Made by a program: the position numbers and the translations under genes
Part shown: positions 3,302-30,824 of the stretch, piece by piece
Numbering within the stretch: the stretch's first letter is position 1
How the letters are laid out: every line of letters begins with the position of its first letter
DNA from: Nitrospirae bacterium CG1_02_44_142
GTDB taxonomy: Bacteria; Nitrospirota; Thermodesulfovibrionia; Thermodesulfovibrionales; UBA1546
Assembly (NCBI GenBank): GCA_001871685.1
Contig: MNVK01000044.1
Span: 1-32,337, forward strand
Length of the DNA stretch: 32,337 bases
Reading direction: 5' to 3'
Notes under the pieces: generated by a model
Databases searched by the model: none
Told to the model about the DNA's origin: nothing
Seen by the model: only the letters and a program-made list of their open reading frames with translations

Positions 3302-3315
3302 TGTCCCTCCATTTT

Positions 3316-3380
3316 CAGGTGTCAGTATTCAGCTGTCAGGTTTTAGTCAACTGACAACTAATACCTGAAACCTAAAACCT
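3316..3380. repeat. 7-nt-period short-word array
   Basis: CAGGTGT CAGTATT CAGCTGT CAGGTTT TAGTCAA CTGACAA CTAATAC CTGAAAC CTAAAAC in constant phase; AGGTTTTAG 3338-3346 pairs with CTAAAACCT 3372-3380. Confidence 0.8.
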
Positions 3381-3503: not shown

Positions 3504-4406
3504 CTACTGCCCTGCTGCGCCTCTGCTCTGTTGCACTGTAGTAATGGTTTCAACAACCCTGCTCCATCCGCCCAAGACGGACGGCTGCATTGCCTTCGCA
3601 GCATCCTTGGCTTTTCCCCTGCTGCCGAATACGCCGAAGACAGCAGGCCCGCTTCCGCTCATAAGTGAAGCCTCTGCCCCCATGTCAAGCAGCCTGTCCT
3701 TAATTTCCCCTATAACCTGAAACTCCCTTATCACAGGAAGCTCAAGGTCGTTTCTCATCATTAAGGCTATTGATTTAAAATCCTGCGTCTCAAGGGCTTG
3801 ACAGAAAAGTTTAATATTATTATCTCTCTTTGTCAACTCCGGCAGCAGCTTGCTCATCTCTGAATATGCCCACTTTGATGATATGCCGAGAGCAGGTTTC
3901 ACAACAACAATAATATGTCTGCTGACGGCTTTAAGTCTCGCGGCTATCTCACCTCTGCCTCTAACCACAGCGATAGGGGCTTTAAAAAAGAAGGGGACAT
4001 CGGAACCGAGCATTCCGCCGAATTTTATCAATTCTTCATCCTTCAATCCAAGCTCCCACAGCCTGTTCAGCCCTGAAAGGGCGCATGCCGCATCGCTGCT
4101 TCCTCCTCCCAAACCTGCGGATACAGGTATCTCTTTCCTCAATGTTATGACGGCCCCTTTATTGACCGATAATTTTTCTTTAAGAAGAACAGCAGCCCTA
4201 TAAACAAGGTTTTCCTCAAGAGGGATATTCGTTTCTGTTTTTACCTCAATCCTGTCAGAATATCCAAAAGTGAGATGGTCATAGAGTGAGATGCTCTGCA
4301 TGAGGCTTAATATCTCATGATAGCCGTCTTCTCTCTTTCCCAGAACTGACAGGAACCAGTTTATCTTTGCAGGCGTTTTAAGCGTGAACATAACTTGAAA
4401 ATCCAA
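3504..4406 (-). CDS. ispE: 4-diphosphocytidyl-2-C-methyl-D-erythritol kinase
   Basis: TPAKINWFLSVLGKREDGYHEI, VSAGLGGGSSDAACAL, GSDVPFF, MSGSGPAVFG; an internal start at MFTLKTPAKIN is possible. Confidence 0.96.
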   Translation of the reverse strand: MDFQVMFTLKTPAKINWFLSVLGKREDGYHEILSLMQSISLYDHLTFGYSDRIEVKTETNIPLEENLVYRAAVLLKEKLSVNKGAVITLRKEIPVSAGLGGGSSDAACALSGLNRLWELGLKDEELIKFGGMLGSDVPFFFKAPIAVVRGRGEIAARLKAVSRHIIVVVKPALGISSKWAYSEMSKLLPELTKRDNNIKLFCQALETQDFKSIALMMRNDLELPVIREFQVIGEIKDRLLDMGAEASLMSGSGPAVFGVFGSRGKAKDAAKAMQPSVLGGWSRVVETITTVQQSRGAAGQ

Positions 4407-4412
4407 ATACTA

Positions 4413-4452
4413 ATGGTGAATGGGTGAATAGGTGAATGGGAAAATGGGTTCT
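4413..4452. repeat. 8-nt-period short-word array
   Basis: ATGGTGAA TGGGTGAA TAGGTGAA TGGGAAAA TGGGTTCT; ATGGTGAAT 4413-4421 pairs with ATTCACCAT 4457-4465. Confidence 0.75.
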
Positions 4453-4464
4453 TGCGATTCACCA

Positions 4465-6210
4465 TCAAGGTTTTTTAATTTTTAATTTTAAATCTTGAAT
4501 TTTCTTTTCTACTCTTCCCTTAAGCCCTTCTTCTTTTTCGTGGAACTTCAGCGCATTCTCCCATGCATCCAGCGCCTCTTTATTCAGGCCCTGAGAGAGG
4601 TAAATATCTCCAAGGTGTTCATAGATTACAGGGTCGTTGTTTACTATGCTCTGGGCTTTCTGCAATGCCTTTACAGCATCCTCATGCCTGCCCATCTTGA
4701 AATACACCCAGCCAAGGCTGTCAACTATATATCCGTTGTCGGGTTTTAACTTAAGCGCCTTCTGTATAAGCGAAAGGGCTTCTTCAAGGTTTATGCCTTT
4801 ATCAGCGTAACTATATCCAAGATAATTCAAGGCGTCGGCATGTTCGGGGTTTATCTCAATAGTGCGCCTGAGATATTTCACCATCTCTTCAAATCTGCCT
4901 GCCTTTTCATGCATCACTGCCATATTGAAATTGAGTTCAGTATCGTTCGGAAAAAGGCGCAGCCCCTCCGAGAATATCCCCTCTGCTTTTTTGTAATCTT
5001 TTAACTGTATATAACTGACGCCGAGATATACATACACTTCAGGCTTGCCTTTCTCAAAGCTCAGTATCTCTTCATACATCTTTACCGCATCAATATGCCG
5101 CCCTTCTTTTGAAAAGATAAAGCCGAGATGCAGGAAGGCCCCTATGTTTTTTGGGTCCACGGCAATAATCTTTTTCAGTTCCTCTGCCGCCTCTTTATAT
5201 CTGTCCGCTTCTTCAAGAGTAACAGCTAAATAGTATCTAATCTGCGCATCCGACGGCTTGGCTGTAAGAACAAGCCTGAATTCCTCTATGGCCCTGTCAT
5301 ACTGCTTGGTTTCTATATAGAGGAGTCCGAGTCTTCTATGTATATCAAGATTTGCCGGCTCCTGAATGGTCATGTCCCTGAGCTGCTCTATGGCCTTGTC
5401 AACTGTTTTATCTTTCAGATAAATCTGAGTAAGCCGTTCCTGCGCAAGCGTGTTCTGCGGATTAAGCTCCACGCTTTTTTTATAATGTTTTTCAGCCTGT
5501 TTCAAATCTCCCTTTATTTCGCTTATCACCCCGAGGTTAAGGTATGCGGCGTCGAAATTAGGCCTTATCTCTGCGACCTTGCTGAAATATTCCGCCGCCT
5601 TATCATAATCTTTCAAATCCATATTTACGAGGCCAAGATAATATATCCCCATAAAATTATCGGGGTCTGTTTTGAGAAAAGACTCAAGAATTCCCTTTGC
5701 CTCGGAATAGCGCTTTCCCGCAGCATACAAAACCCCCAGAAAAAGGTATGCGTCTGCCTGTGTGTTATCAAGTTCAAGCGCCTTCTCAAAAATCTTTATT
5801 GCTTTATCAGTATCTTTCCGGCTGTTATAAAGTTCGCCGAGCAGCATAAGCGCAGGGACATAATCAGGATTTGCCTTTACGGTTTCCTCTGTCATAGCGA
5901 TAGCATCAGGAATCTTGCCTGTCCTCAGAAGCACATAACTTATCTGGGTTCTGATGTAAGGAGATGCAGTATCTATCTTAAGCGCCTCTGAATAATGATT
6001 CAGCGCATCTTCCCATTTGCCTGAAAGTTCCGCCTCATAGCCGAGGATATAGTGATAATAAGCCTCTTTTGGAATATCGGGAGATTCTGGAGGCTCTGTG
6101 CGAAATGCCGGAGCACATGAAAAAATAAAAAGCGCCGACAGAATTAACAGGATTTTTTTAGACATGCGGATATTATGACACATAAGATATAGGCGGTCAA
6201 CGTTTTGCAA
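4465..6210 (-). CDS. Tetratricopeptide-repeat (TPR) protein, probable lipoprotein/secreted
   Basis: Many 34-aa TPR units (e.g. ADAYLFLGVLYAAGKRYSEAKGILESFLKTDPDN); lipobox-like LFIFSC near the N-terminus. Confidence 0.93.
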   Translation of the reverse strand: MQNVDRLYLMCHNIRMSKKILLILSALFIFSCAPAFRTEPPESPDIPKEAYYHYILGYEAELSGKWEDALNHYSEALKIDTASPYIRTQISYVLLRTGKIPDAIAMTEETVKANPDYVPALMLLGELYNSRKDTDKAIKIFEKALELDNTQADAYLFLGVLYAAGKRYSEAKGILESFLKTDPDNFMGIYYLGLVNMDLKDYDKAAEYFSKVAEIRPNFDAAYLNLGVISEIKGDLKQAEKHYKKSVELNPQNTLAQERLTQIYLKDKTVDKAIEQLRDMTIQEPANLDIHRRLGLLYIETKQYDRAIEEFRLVLTAKPSDAQIRYYLAVTLEEADRYKEAAEELKKIIAVDPKNIGAFLHLGFIFSKEGRHIDAVKMYEEILSFEKGKPEVYVYLGVSYIQLKDYKKAEGIFSEGLRLFPNDTELNFNMAVMHEKAGRFEEMVKYLRRTIEINPEHADALNYLGYSYADKGINLEEALSLIQKALKLKPDNGYIVDSLGWVYFKMGRHEDAVKALQKAQSIVNNDPVIYEHLGDIYLSQGLNKEALDAWENALKFHEKEEGLKGRVEKKIQDLKLKIKKP

Positions 6211-7489: not shown

Positions 7490-7501
7490 GAAAAAACTAA
7501 A

Positions 7502-7536
7502 AGCTATCAGCTATGAGCTATCAGCTAAAGGCTATT
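7502..7536. repeat. 7-nt-period short-word array between lolC/E and lolD
   Basis: AGCTATC AGCTATG AGCTATC AGCTAAA GGCTATT, five heptads ending 1 nt before the lolD ATG. Confidence 0.85.
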
Positions 7537-8662: not shown

Positions 8663-8682
8663 GAAAGATTTATTTTTTAAGT

Positions 8683-8796
8683 GAGGCTCTTGCAAAAGTA
8701 CGGATTTAGCATTCTGAGCTTGTCTAAGGGTTCTGTTATTCTTCTACAAGCTCAGAATGACAGAAGGGTTTTTCCCAATACTTTTGCAAGAGCCTC
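8683..8796. repeat. Nested inverted-repeat (MITE/REP-like) element
   Basis: Perfect 18-bp outer arms gaggctcttgcaaaagta (8683-8700) / tacttttgcaagagcctc (8779-8796) and perfect 14-bp inner arms cattctgagcttgt (8710-8723) / acaagctcagaatg (8746-8759). Confidence 0.9.
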
Positions 8797-8887
8797 AAAT
8801 TTTAATTCCGGTAAAAATCCTCTTCTCCGCAAGTCGGACGGGGCTGCGGCAATTGCCTTCCCTAATCAAGAAATGCTAAAATGATAA

Positions 8888-16131: not shown

Positions 16132-16159
16132 AGCTATCAGCTCTCAGCGTTCAGCTAAC
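16132..16159. repeat. 7-nt-period short-word array
   Basis: AGCTATC AGCTCTC AGCGTTC AGCTAAC. Confidence 0.75.
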
Positions 16160-16224
16160 AGCAAAAGCAGTAATTATTATAGCAAATACAGGTCATCATG
16201 GCACAGTTTTGCTGGGTCTAAAAT

Positions 16225-16249
16225 AAAAAGCCCTCAAAAAGGGCTTTTT
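16225..16249 (-). terminator. Intrinsic terminator downstream of rnfB
   Basis: AAAAAGCCC-TCAAAAA-GGGCTTTTT hairpin, T-rich on both strands. Confidence 0.85.
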
Positions 16250-16255
16250 ATTTTA

Positions 16256-16286
16256 CTGAAAGCTGACTGCTGAAAGCTGATTACTG
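16256..16286. repeat. 7-nt-period short-word array
   Basis: CTGAAAG CTGACTG CTGAAAG CTGATTA CTG; inverted relative to the 16132-16159 word. Confidence 0.75.
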
Positions 16287-16292
16287 TTTTTC

Positions 16293-17474
16293 TTATGCTG
16301 CCTCAGCTTTTTTCTTTTTCTTTTCCGCCGAGGCCGCAAAGACCTCTGATGCGTTGAATGTCCCGTCTATTGCCTGAACAGGACACCTTGCCGTGCAGAT
16401 TCCGCAGCCTATACATTTATCTTTATCAATTGAGTGCTTTTTCTTCAACTCGCCTAAGGGCGCATTAACAGGACACACCTTTGCACATATCTGGCATCCA
16501 ATACATTTATCCAGCACAAATGCCTTTGACCTGTGAGGTATGAAATCAGTGATTGCCTTTGTCGGGCACTTTGGAACGCATAAGCCGCATACCTTGCACT
16601 TGTTTATGTCAATCCTTGAAAGATTATTCTCAACAGAAGGGGCATCAAACGGGCAGACCTTAACGCAGATGCCGCATGCAATGCATCCGACCTGACAGTT
16701 CTTTCTTGTGTCTCCGCCTTTATCCTTTGAATGGCATGTAACCAAGACCTGCTTTGATGCAGGAAGGACTTCTATGACCTTCACAGGACATGCCTTTTCG
16801 CATTTCCTGCAGCCTGTGCATTTCACTATATCAACAACAGGAAGATGGTCCTCGCTCATAGTTATTGCGCCAAAAGGACATACCCTTGAGCATGTGCCGT
16901 AACCAAGGCATCCGTATCTGCAAGACTTATCCCCGCCCCCTGCAAGTATCGCAGCCCTGCAGTCCTGCACGCCTTCGTATCTGAATTTTTTAACTGACTT
17001 AGACCAGCCTCCCTGACACATAATCCTTGCAAAGTTAGGCTCTAACGCAGATGCCGTCTTGCCTGTTATCCTTGCAACTGCCTCAGCGCTCTTTGCGCCT
17101 CCGGGGATACATAAATTAGACGCAACATCGGGCTCTTTGACCACAGCCTCTGCATACTGTTCGCACCCTGCAAATCCGCATGCGCCGCAGTTTGCGCCCG
17201 CAAGAACATCCCTTACCTGCTCAACCTTAGGGTCGGTCCGGACGGCAAATCTTTTTGCTGCCAGGGCCAATACGACGCCGAAAAAAGCGCCTACACCGGC
17301 AAGGAAGACAAGTGTCCATTTAATCAGGGGAATAATGTCTATCTTTTCCTTTGCCTCAACCCCGCCGCCAACACCGGCAAAAACAGAAGTAGAGCAGAAG
17401 AGCAGAAGAACAATAGAGCAGTAGAATGAAAAAGCAATAATAGTTATCTTTTTTATTTTGGAATCATTAAACAT
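16293..17474 (-). CDS. rnfB: Rnf complex subunit RnfB (polyferredoxin)
   Basis: TM segment, ANCGACGFAGCEQYAEAV Fe-S domain, then about six 4Fe-4S cysteine clusters; last gene of the rnf operon. Confidence 0.95.
   Translation of the reverse strand: MFNDSKIKKITIIAFSFYCSIVLLLFCSTSVFAGVGGGVEAKEKIDIIPLIKWTLVFLAGVGAFFGVVLALAAKRFAVRTDPKVEQVRDVLAGANCGACGFAGCEQYAEAVVKEPDVASNLCIPGGAKSAEAVARITGKTASALEPNFARIMCQGGWSKSVKKFRYEGVQDCRAAILAGGGDKSCRYGCLGYGTCSRVCPFGAITMSEDHLPVVDIVKCTGCRKCEKACPVKVIEVLPASKQVLVTCHSKDKGGDTRKNCQVGCIACGICVKVCPFDAPSVENNLSRIDINKCKVCGLCVPKCPTKAITDFIPHRSKAFVLDKCIGCQICAKVCPVNAPLGELKKKHSIDKDKCIGCGICTARCPVQAIDGTFNASEVFAASAEKKKKKAEAA
17385..17424. repeat. 8-nt-period array inside the rnfB 5' coding region
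   Basis: AGAAGTAG AGCAGAAG AGCAGAAG AACAATAG AGCAGTAG. Confidence 0.75.
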
Positions 17475-17532
17475 AAGTCACTCCTCTAACTTTTATTACA
17501 AACAGTAGCAACAGAAAATAAAAACGGTTGCA

Positions 17533-17558
17533 CTACTGCTCTTCTGTTCTACTGCTCT
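17533..17558. repeat. 8-nt-period array in the rnfA-rnfB spacer, inverted relative to 17385-17424
   Basis: CTACTGCT CTTCTGTT CTACTGCT CT. Confidence 0.7.
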
Positions 17559-20426: not shown

Positions 20427-20444
20427 CTAACCTCCAAGCAAAAA

Positions 20445-20514
20445 ATTCAAGATTCAAGATTGAAGATTCAATTAAATACAGGTTCAAAATATTGAATATT
20501 GAATGTTGAATTTG
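20445..20514. repeat. 7-nt-period short-word array in the rnfC-rnfD spacer
   Basis: ATTCAAG ATTCAAG ATTGAAG ATTCAAT TAAATAC AGGTTCA AAATATT GAATATT GAATGTT GAATTTG. Confidence 0.85.
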
Positions 20515-25332: not shown

Positions 25333-25526
25333 TGGCTAAACTTAAGCAAATACAACAGATAACTCAATTTCTCTCAGCCTATCCCAAAGATGTAGTTGGA
25401 CTTGGCATAGAGGCATGGCGGACAGGTGAGATGCCAGTCAAGGAAGATTCAAGATTCAAGATTCAAGATTTAAGATTCAATAGAGGGAATGGTGTCAAAT
25501 GTCCCTCTTGCTCAAAATTACAATGA
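25332..25526 (+). CDS. Short hypothetical ORF overlapping the peptidase stop; possibly a gene remnant
   Basis: MAKLKQIQQITQFLSAYPKDVVGLGIEAWRTGEMPVKEDSRFKIQDLRFNRGNGVKCPSCSKLQ; the C-terminal third is read from a heptad repeat. Confidence 0.3.
   Translation: MAKLKQIQQITQFLSAYPKDVVGLGIEAWRTGEMPVKEDSRFKIQDLRFNRGNGVKCPSCSKLQ
25446..25480. repeat. 7-nt-period short-word array
   Basis: GATTCAA x3, GATTTAA, GATTCAA. Confidence 0.85.
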
Positions 25527-29015: not shown

Positions 29016-30515
29016 TTAACCCAGCCCCTTCTCTGCCATCTCCACCGCCTTCATCATCCCCATAGCCTTATTCACTGTTTCAGTGTATTCCCTCTCTGGC
29101 ACTGAATCAGCTACTATCCCTGCGCCTGCCTGAACATAAACCTTCCCGTCTTTTATTATAAGCGTTCTTATCGTAATGCACGTATCCATATTCCCTGAAT
29201 AGCTGAAATATCCCACAGAGCCGGCATAAGGCCCTCTTTTAATCGGCTCAAGTTCATCTATAATCTCCATTGCCCGAACCTTTGGAGCGCCGCTCACAGT
29301 GCCTGCCGGAAAACAGGCCCGAAGCACATCAAAGGCATCAAGATTTTTCTCCAGCTTTCCTTCAACATTAGAAACCATATGCATCACATGGCTGTATCTT
29401 TCAACACCCATCAACTCTGTCACATTAACAGAACCTTTCTCGGAAACCCTGCCGACATCATTCCTTCCGAGGTCCACAAGCATTATATGCTCTGCCATCT
29501 CCTTCGGGTCTTTTTTAAGTTCCTCTTCCAGAGCCTTATCCTCTGCCTCTGTTTCACCCCTTTTCCTGGTGCCTGCGATTGGCCTGAGGACAACTTTTTC
29601 TCCTTCAAGCCGCACAAGTATCTCTGGAGATGAGCCGACAATCTCCGCGTCTCCCGTGTCAATGTAATACATGTAAGGTGAAGGATTAATCACACGAAGC
29701 GCACGGTAAACATCAAAAGGCTCAACATCAGATTTGCGCTCAAATCTCTGCGAGAGCACAACCTGAAATATGTCTCCGGCCGCAATATATTCTTTTGACT
29801 TAAGCACAGCCTCCTCAAAAGCCTCTTTCGTCTTAAAACTTGATGCGAATTTCTGTTGCTTAGTGTTTTTTGTTTTAACTTTTAACTTTAAACTTTTAAC
29901 TTTAAACTTTCTTAGCCTTTCTACTATGTCCTCTATCTTCTCCACTGCCTCTTTATACGCCTTTGCAGGGCTTTTTCCGTCTACATGGACATTAGAGACT
30001 ATCTTTATCTTCTGCTTAAGGCTGTCAAATATGAGCATTGTGTCAGCAAGCATAAAGAACATATCAGGCATATCAATGCCGGGTTTTTTGCTGTCTGGGA
30101 CACGCTCAAAGAACCTGACCATGTCATAGCCCATATATCCGACAAGCCCCCCTGAAAATCTCGGAAGCCCCGGGACAGCGACAGGCATGTAAAGAGCTAT
30201 CTCTTTTTTTAGCGCATCCACAGGGTCCTCTGCCTCAAATACAACCGGCTTCCTGCCTCTTTCTCTTATCTCTATCTTCTTCCCCTGCCCCTTTATAATC
30301 TTTGACGGATTAGTTCCGAGAAAGGAATATCTGGCCCATTTTTCTCCTCCGACAACACTCTCAAGCAGGAAGGAAGGGCTTTTGCCAATCTTCAAAAATG
30401 CAGAGACGGGAGTGTCAAAATCAGCGAGGACTTCCCTATAGACAGGGATGAGATTTCCCTTTCTGCATAGAGACTTAAACTCTTTAAGGTCAGGATACAG
30501 CATATTGACAAACAA
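29016..30515 (-). CDS. trpE: Anthranilate synthase component I
   Basis: YIAAGDIFQVVLSQRFER, IAGTRKRGETEAEDKALEEEL, DLGRNDVGRVSEKGSV, FPAGTVSGAPKVRAMEIIDELE. Confidence 0.97.
   Translation of the reverse strand: MFVNMLYPDLKEFKSLCRKGNLIPVYREVLADFDTPVSAFLKIGKSPSFLLESVVGGEKWARYSFLGTNPSKIIKGQGKKIEIRERGRKPVVFEAEDPVDALKKEIALYMPVAVPGLPRFSGGLVGYMGYDMVRFFERVPDSKKPGIDMPDMFFMLADTMLIFDSLKQKIKIVSNVHVDGKSPAKAYKEAVEKIEDIVERLRKFKVKSLKLKVKTKNTKQQKFASSFKTKEAFEEAVLKSKEYIAAGDIFQVVLSQRFERKSDVEPFDVYRALRVINPSPYMYYIDTGDAEIVGSSPEILVRLEGEKVVLRPIAGTRKRGETEAEDKALEEELKKDPKEMAEHIMLVDLGRNDVGRVSEKGSVNVTELMGVERYSHVMHMVSNVEGKLEKNLDAFDVLRACFPAGTVSGAPKVRAMEIIDELEPIKRGPYAGSVGYFSYSGNMDTCITIRTLIIKDGKVYVQAGAGIVADSVPEREYTETVNKAMGMMKAVEMAEKGLG
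29873..29914. repeat. 7-nt-period array inside the trpE coding sequence
   Basis: TTTTAAC TTTTAAC TTTAAAC TTTTAAC TTTAAAC TTTCTTA; encodes KFKVKSLKLKVKTK on the minus strand. Confidence 0.85.
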
Positions 30516-30556
30516 GTCCTTTTTTCATTATTCTTGATAGTATACATTAGGAATCA

Positions 30557-30663
30557 GTTAGAAGTTAAGAGTTGGAAGTTAGAAGTTACAAGTTAAGAGT
30601 TCTTTAAATCTTTAATTTTTAGTTTCCAATTTTTAACTTTAAACTTATAATTCTTAACTTTTC
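30557..30663. repeat. 7-nt-period array, about 15 units, word switches to its reverse complement midway
   Basis: GTTAGAA GTTAAGA GTTGGAA GTTAGAA GTTACAA GTTAAGA GTTCTTT AAATCTT TAATTTT TAGTTTC CAATTTT TAACTTT AAACTTA TAATTCT TAACTTT. Confidence 0.9.
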
Positions 30664-30754: not shown

Positions 30755-30824
30755 CGTAATGCGTAATGCGTTAAGCGTAGTGAGTAAAAAATACTCGTCA
30801 CGCATTACGGATTACGCATTACGT
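30755..30824. repeat. 7-nt-period array forming a 32-bp-armed inverted repeat between two tRNAs
   Basis: Arms 30755-30786 and 30792-30823, 26/32 positions complementary; ten in-phase heptads CGTAATG CGTAATG CGTTAAG CGTAGTG AGTAAAA AATACTC GTCACGC ATTACGG ATTACGC ATTACGT. Confidence 0.92.

What the first reader, a model, noticed from the sequence alone, without database searches (positions are those of the whole stretch)
30557..30663. A family of 7-nt-phased repeat arrays in which the word differs per locus and can flip to its reverse complement
This spacer reads as about 15 consecutive 7-mers. The first half uses GTTARAA-type words and the second half their reverse complement (TAACTTT), with no loss of 7-nt phase. 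The same architecture recurs at about 14 places in 32 kb with different words: 3316, 3504 (8-nt), 4413 (8-nt), 4471, 7502, 16132, 16256, 17385 (8-nt), 17533 (8-nt), 20445, 25446, 29873 and 30755. Precedent from memory: heptanucleotide STRR repeats in heterocystous cyanobacteria. Constant phase across the inversion and locus-specific words suggest a templated or fold-back synthesis process rather than ordinary slippage (inference).
Basis: partly seen in the sequence, partly recalled or inferred. Interest (0 to 1): 0.78.

Follow-up and report, generated by a model that had tools for sequence, protein, structure and literature searches.

The report
Convergent 7/8-nt repeat-array hairpins
This bacterium's genome is peppered with short hairpins whose two arms are runs of a 7- or 8-letter DNA word, and related species often carry a different word at the same spot, so some process keeps inserting or rewriting these arrays in gaps, beside tRNA genes and even inside proteins.

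Summary
The spacer at 30556-30663 is strongly 7-nt periodic (p=0.0005), and 13 of the 14 listed places pass a shuffle test (3504 is borderline). In 0.47 Mb of the same genome, periods 7 and 8 occur at 15.5 and 5.5 per 100 kb against about 0.5 in shuffles; no other period from 4 to 13 exceeds 1.1. A single-contig genome of another family has them too, so an assembly artefact is unlikely.

Most are hairpins: 134 of 301 arrays have an inverted partner, 8 a direct one. The purine-rich word runs towards the centre in 78 of 84. Word families have fixed and free positions. The two arms vary independently and loop length ignores the 7-nt phase, so 'constant phase' and fold-back templating are not supported. 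Loops and unit order differ between same-word hairpins, against simple copy-paste. Relatives show empty sites and different words at the same site; 32 own arrays lie inside conserved coding sequence.

Closest precedents are the convergent GGGANTN heptamers of Xanthomonas and paired 7/8-mers of Geobacter. Best model: recurrent insertion or rewriting of convergent arrays by an unidentified repeat-adding process (0.4).

The parts
30556..30601 (+). AGTTARA 7-nt array, 5' arm of the hairpin between trpE and tRNA-Gly
   Evidence: lag-7 score 16.5; inverted repeat I2; fold z=-5.8; an AGTTAAA-type hairpin sits at this spacer in all relatives whose spacer could be read
30604..30660 (-). complementary 7-nt array (TTAACTT), 3' arm of the same hairpin
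30755..30786 (+). CGTAATG array, 5' arm, between tRNA-Gly and tRNA-Cys; other words or none at this spacer in relatives
   Evidence: inverted repeat I1, 32-nt arms, 81%; fold z=-6.6; alleles
30792..30823 (-). complementary arm of the CGTAATG hairpin
29864..29910 (-). AGTTAAA array inside the trpE coding sequence (Lys-rich linker); 8-nt GTTCAAGG arrays or 7-nt AAAATTC arrays at the same place in relatives
25444..25480 (+). AGATTCA single array without partner
   Evidence: lag-7 score 25
20442..20471 (+). AAGATTC array, 5' arm, in the rnfD-rnfC spacer (gene names read from sequence); spacer is 10-21 nt and empty in several relatives
20488..20511 (-). complementary arm (AATATTG)
17385..17425 (+). 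8-nt GAGCAGWA array, 5' arm, at the start of rnfB
   Evidence: lag-8 score 15.5; inverted repeats I3, I4
17528..17558 (-). complementary 8-nt arm (CTACTGCTCTT)
16132..16162 (.). AGCTATC array next to tRNA-Ser
16256..16280 (.). CTGAAAG array, complementary partner of 16132, the two flanking a perfect 16-bp hairpin at 16219-16255
7492..7527 (.). AGCTATC array in the lolC-lolD spacer (names read from sequence); different insertions in relatives
4415..4448 (+). GGTGAATN 8-nt array with a short GATTCACC partner at about 4456
   Evidence: lag-8 score 16
4472..4503 (.). TTTTTAA array (A+T-rich, weakest word identity)
3312..3370 (.). AGGTGTC / CACCTGA hairpin beside tRNA-Gln
   Evidence: p=0.007
3504..3530 (.). 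weak 8-nt CTGCNCTN array, borderline
   Evidence: p=0.05

Best explanation
The arrays are recurrent insertional products rather than dedicated functional sites. At a spacer, tRNA flank or protein loop, a process lays down a short run (mostly 4-5 units, about 32 nt) of one degenerate 7- or 8-nt word, usually on both sides of a small core. On both strands the purine-rich form runs 5' to 3' towards the centre, giving a convergent hairpin. Each arm is laid down, or later re-shuffled unit by unit, independently of the other. New arrays insert at, nest within or replace older insertions, so sister species have an empty site, the same word or another word at one location. Selection then filters: hairpins survive in spacers, and only in-frame, stop-free single arrays survive in proteins. 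Shown: periodicity, convergence, polarity, fixed/free positions, arm independence, empty and replaced sites, presence in coding sequence. Inferred: that a repeat-adding (3'-end extension or slippage-like) activity at breaks or gaps is the writer; its enzyme is unknown.
For: Only lags 7 and 8 enriched; 134 inverted against 8 direct partners and 78:6 purine polarity; fixed and free unit positions that persist in coding arrays; arms independent; loops and unit order not shared within word families; empty sites and word replacement against G001; nested and composite hairpins; 32 arrays in conserved coding sequence, 31 unpaired; in G011 an array directly abuts a tRNA-Gly gene lacking its first 56 nt, as expected of an event at a break.
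Against: No writer enzyme identified: reverse transcriptase, Ku and Y1 transposase are each missing from array-rich genomes. Shared, degenerate words are not explained by a generic polymerase. Arrays occupy the same spacers in sister species more often than chance, which selection would also produce. A few same-word hairpins share loop fragments, as copying would.
Confidence: 0.4

Rival explanations
1. Maintained binding or structural sites: a protein or RNA mechanism reads the fixed positions of each word, and convergent pairs in operon spacers regulate transcription, translation or mRNA stability.
For: Fixed and free positions look like recognition motifs; arrays recur in the same orthologous spacers; an AGTTAAA hairpin lies upstream of trpE in all relatives readable there; strong RNA folds; singles in tandem spacers are purine-rich on the sense strand 11:1.
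Against: Word and unit length change at the same site between sister species; 32 arrays inside proteins; no covariation between arms and no G-U excess; no enrichment between convergent genes; many empty sites.
Confidence: 0.22
2. Old palindromic mobile elements (MITE/REP/RPE-like) whose arms have since been scrambled by unit gain, loss and exchange.
For: Word families dispersed and amplified by lineage (GATRCAN: G008 292, G001 148, own 40); presence/absence with empty sites; in-frame gene insertions; nesting; some shared loop pieces.
Against: Loops and unit order within a family are near random although fixed positions deviate only about 5%; no target duplication visible in the alignments; Y1 transposase absent in G001 and G002.
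Confidence: 0.18
3. Ordinary slippage expansion of chance short repeats, 7-8 nt being favoured by the polymerase footprint (idea attributed to earlier SSR work in PMC4679880 and PMC4692102).
For: Heptamers are the commonest long repeat class in many bacteria; 14- and 16-nt higher-order repeats, e.g. L042:1940-2015.
Against: Does not give convergence, purine polarity, recurrent words, fixed/free positions, or a peak at 4-5 units.
Confidence: 0.12
4. Fold-back (hairpin-templated) synthesis copies one arm from the other.
For: Arms are reverse complements in consensus.
Against: Variants are not mirrored between arms and arm lengths are uncorrelated; loop length has no 7-nt phase.
Confidence: 0.05
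5. A telomerase-like reverse transcriptase adds templated repeats to broken 3' ends.
For: Would give convergent purine-rich arms written independently; DRT10 makes tandem repeats from a short RNA template (PMC12632851).
Against: No RVT_1 match in G000, G001 (100% complete), G005 or G007; two free positions per unit do not fit one fixed template.
Confidence: 0.03

Closest known systems
GGGAATC / (GGGANTN)n heptamer repeats of Xanthomonas (PMC4692102)
   Same: 7-nt units with free positions, preference for four units, convergent inverted pairs (70 cases among 186 arrays in Xcc), mostly between aligned genes, length and sequence variation at the same site between species
   Different: One G-rich word and a G-quadruplex interpretation there; here about ten words of two unit lengths, most unable to form G-quadruplexes, and word replacement at one site
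Paired 7/8-nt repeat sites of Geobacter metallireducens, classes 1-3 (PMC2700814)
   Same: Tandem hepta- or octanucleotides in pairs on opposite strands at variable distance, several words in one genome
   Different: Interpreted as regulator-binding sites, some with IS elements at fixed distance; no arm, loop or ortholog analysis in the text read
TAACTGA repeats of Beggiatoaceae (PMC4679880)
   Same: Intergenic tandem heptamers, patchily distributed across phyla
   Different: One word, almost all direct, oriented to start codons; only one inverted case
STRR heptanucleotide repeats of heterocystous cyanobacteria
   Different: Not tested here; convergent pairing reported as rare in Nostoc
Rickettsia palindromic elements, REP and MITE families
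   Same: Short hairpins in spacers and, for RPE, in frame inside genes (general knowledge)
   Different: Those families share a conserved body; here only the unit word is shared

Membership tests
Bacterial long simple sequence repeats (heptanucleotide LSSR) | Tandem unit of fixed short length above chance | tested here: met
Bacterial long simple sequence repeats (heptanucleotide LSSR) | Origin by slippage, differences spread over all unit positions | tested here: not met
   Differences concentrate at one to three positions
Xanthomonas-type convergent heptamer repeats | 7-nt units with free positions in convergent pairs between aligned genes | tested here: met
   feature list from PMC4692102
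Xanthomonas-type convergent heptamer repeats | G-rich unit able to form a G-quadruplex | tested here: not met
   Most words (AGTTAAA, GATRCAN, CGTRATG, AATTCAA) have no run of three G; read from sequence
MITE / REP / RPE mobile palindromes | Copies share a conserved body including the loop | tested here: not met
   Loops and unit order near random within word families
MITE / REP / RPE mobile palindromes | Target-site duplication | tested here: inconclusive
   None seen, but compared sites are only about 83-90% identical
MITE / REP / RPE mobile palindromes | Presence/absence at orthologous sites | tested here: met
REP/RAYT system | Y1 transposase encoded in the genome | tested here: not met
   None in G001 or G002, which carry arrays; three in G000
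Telomerase-like repeat synthesis (DRT10) | Encoded reverse transcriptase | tested here: not met

The most novel reading that the evidence does not exclude
An undescribed, reverse-transcriptase-independent activity in bacteria writes short runs of degenerate 7/8-nt words onto both 3' ends of a break or gap, a bacterial analogue of telomeric repeat insertion at double-strand breaks, leaving convergent arrays.
Probability: 0.15. Interest if true: 0.9.

Novelty: new variant of a known kind. Interest (0 to 1): 0.6.

Why it matters
Heptanucleotide excess in bacteria has been attributed to slippage, G-quadruplexes or regulators. Here one genome holds about ten word families that obey the same rules (period 7/8, mostly 4-5 units, convergent, purine-rich towards the centre, fixed and free positions), yet arms, loops and unit order are not copied, and sister species carry different words at the same site. 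That is hard for each standard account, and it makes the origin testable with close strains. Such arrays also add in-frame low-complexity peptides to conserved proteins and, in one relative, border a truncated tRNA gene.

Tried and rejected
Y1/RAYT mobilisation (absent in G001 and G002); telomerase-like reverse transcriptase; Ku-dependent end joining (absent in all array-rich genomes tested except G046); terminators (no enrichment at convergent genes); RNA-level pairing selection (no G-U excess, no arm covariation); stop-codon cassettes as the reason for the polarity (more stops in the 5' arm in 37 hairpins, in the 3' arm in 23); phase-locked inversion; a shared vocabulary across phyla beyond GGTGAATN (no clear excess over a shuffled-word null once that word is set aside); known RNA family (only tRNAs matched).

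Full report
WHAT WAS CHECKED. The window is a whole 32,337-base contig of a 1.79 Mb draft genome. Its order is Thermodesulfovibrionales (Nitrospirota): genome G003 of the same genus has GGTGAATN matches at the same contig positions as records titled 'Thermodesulfovibrionales bacterium isolate Yes70-26' (inference from matching coordinates). The trpE/tRNA-Gly spacer at 30556-30663 has 64% identity at lag 7 against 33% expected, p=0.0005. Thirteen of the 14 listed places hold up; 3504 is borderline. In 471 kb of the genome fetched without regard to arrays, lags 7 and 8 stand out (15.5 and 5.5 per 100 kb; lags 4-6 and 9-13 at most 1.1; shuffles about 0.5). Congener G001 has 8.0 and 3.6, and G026 of another family, held as one contig, 8.0 and 2.0. 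G035 of a further family has 0.5 and 0.5.

ANATOMY. In 1.56 Mb (own genome plus G001) there are 301 arrays; 134 have an inverted partner within 160 nt and 8 a direct one. Length peaks at 4-5 units: 226 of 301. In 84 non-redundant hairpins the 5' arm is the purine-richer one in 78, on whichever strand is read, since a hairpin reads the same way on both. The loop median is 17 nt and loop length modulo 7 is flat. Ten word families cover 218 of the 301 arrays. Within a family some positions are fixed and others free: GGTGAATN position 8 differs between adjacent units 53% of the time, position 4 34%, the rest at most 8%; GATRCAN positions 4 and 7 differ 60% and 52%, the rest at most 10%. Generic mutation of a slipped array would spread differences over all positions.

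WHAT THE ARMS SAY. If one arm were copied from the other, variants would mirror. They do not: matching in register equals that of unit-permuted arms (14.24 against 14.04, p=0.23), and arm lengths are uncorrelated (rho 0.04). If hairpins were pasted copies, loops and unit order would be shared within a word family. On the whole they are not, although a few GGTGAATN hairpins share part of a loop by eye. Hairpins nest: L092:6255-6411 has outer 7-mer arms around inner 8-mer arms. Arrays lie within 70 nt of a C-rich palindrome word (CCCCCCTT) in 20 of 185 own cases against about 4 expected.

EVOLUTION. Against G001 (median 83% DNA identity over the longer matches) 186 orthologous spacers were aligned: arrays in both 12, own only 16, G001 only 6, neither 152. 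Fisher p=1.3e-7 for all, 1.1e-6 when zero-length and overlapping spacers are left out, 2e-5 for spacers over 30 nt. Seven or eight of the 12 shared sites carry different words, sometimes 8 nt against 7 nt, with similar spacer length, such as 97 and 98 or 82 and 85 nt. Clean empty sites exist (L116:7649, L054:2634, L089:14658, window 20426). The tRNA-Gly/tRNA-Cys spacer is CGTAATG in the window, AGTTAAA-type in G005 and G002, AGTTCGG-type in G001 and G007, and array-free in G010. Shared sites may reflect conserved function or tolerant hot spots; the data do not separate these.

IN GENES AND NEAR tRNAs. 32 single arrays and one hairpin arm of the own genome lie inside coding sequence conserved in G001, giving peptides such as SPIHPFTHSPIHPFT or KFKIQNSKFKIQ. 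The fixed/free pattern persists there although the reading frame rotates through the word, so it is more likely a property of how arrays are made than of later selection (inference, 11 arrays). Arrays lie within 100 nt of 14 of 48 tRNA genes against 1.6 at random positions; the baseline for spacers between protein genes is 15%. In G011 an array directly abuts a tRNA-Gly gene lacking its first 56 nt.

DISTRIBUTION. GGTGAATN x3 occurs in 21 of 296 Nitrospirota genomes (54 matches in the own genome, 616 in G094), the reversed-word control in none. It also turns up in Acidobacteria, Bacteroidales, Chloroflexi, Syntrophobacteraceae and other records, whose flanks again show lags 7 and 8 well above the rest (14.3 and 8.0 per 100 kb against at most 2). 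Those loci were chosen by one such array, so they are not a random sample. Word sharing across phyla beyond GGTGAATN is not established. GATRCAN is amplified by lineage within the order: 292 matches in G008, 148 in G001, 40 in the own genome, reversed control 0.

MECHANISM. No standard account fits all of this. Slippage does not predict convergence, polarity, shared words or fixed/free positions. Fold-back is contradicted by the arms. Copy-paste is contradicted by loops and unit order. Regulatory sites sit badly with word replacement and gene insertions. I favour recurrent insertion or rewriting of convergent arrays by an unidentified repeat-adding process at breaks or gaps, followed by selection (0.4). 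Reverse transcriptase, Ku and Y1 transposase are not consistently present. DRT10, a telomerase-like bacterial reverse transcriptase that makes tandem repeats (PMC12632851), shows that bacteria can make such DNA, but no reverse transcriptase was found in this genus.

KNOWN KIND. Xanthomonas (GGGANTN)n already shows 7-nt units with free positions, a preference for four units, convergent pairs and placement between aligned genes (PMC4692102), and Geobacter has paired 7/8-mers of several words (PMC2700814). The kind is therefore known. What I did not find in the papers read is the many-word version with independent arms, same-site word replacement and in-frame gene insertions. The literature search covered open-licence papers only.

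LIMITS. Genes were called as open reading frames supported by similarity; gene names in the window are read from sequence and were not tested; 783 kb of the own genome was available; partner searches were ungapped; all comparisons are between species, so no single event was caught.

Noticed in passing
L051:3243-3345, L112:6724-6821, L098:8824-8925, L118:15091: A C-rich palindrome (CCCCCCTTTAATTCCCCCCTTAGTAAGGGGGG) sits between or beside the array arms and also inside genes, where it encodes NPPLPPF-type peptides; near arrays about five times more often than expected.
   Followed up: partly
L118:15050-15180 against G001 (L125): An in-gene array plus C-rich palindrome is almost identical in two species whose flanks differ by about 10-15%, suggesting recent transfer or strong constraint.
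   Followed up: no
L064 (G011) and L065 (G008), tRNA-Gly locus: tRNA-Gly(GCC) is truncated next to trpE in both: in G011 the array abuts the remnant (nt 57-75); in G008 only nt 1-16 remain and foreign sequence follows.
   Followed up: partly
L070, L071, L010 (lolC-lolD and rnfD-rnfC spacers of relatives): Other hairpin repeats (GTCATTGCGAGGAGG..., GTCATTCCGCACTTGATGCGGAAT...) occupy the spacers that hold arrays in the window's genome.
   Followed up: no
L084:1-105 and L108:1-144: Contigs C46 and C104 of the draft genome share an identical end containing an array hairpin; the assembly seems to break there.
   Followed up: no
G094, G103, G085: One genus elsewhere in the phylum holds hundreds of GGTGAATN matches (616, 363, 141), an extreme amplification worth studying.
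   Followed up: no
window 8682-8700 / 8779-8797: A perfect 19-nt inverted repeat 78 nt apart (TGAGGCTCTTGCAAAAGTA), enclosing a second inverted repeat at 8710-8759, not built of 7/8-mers.
   Followed up: no
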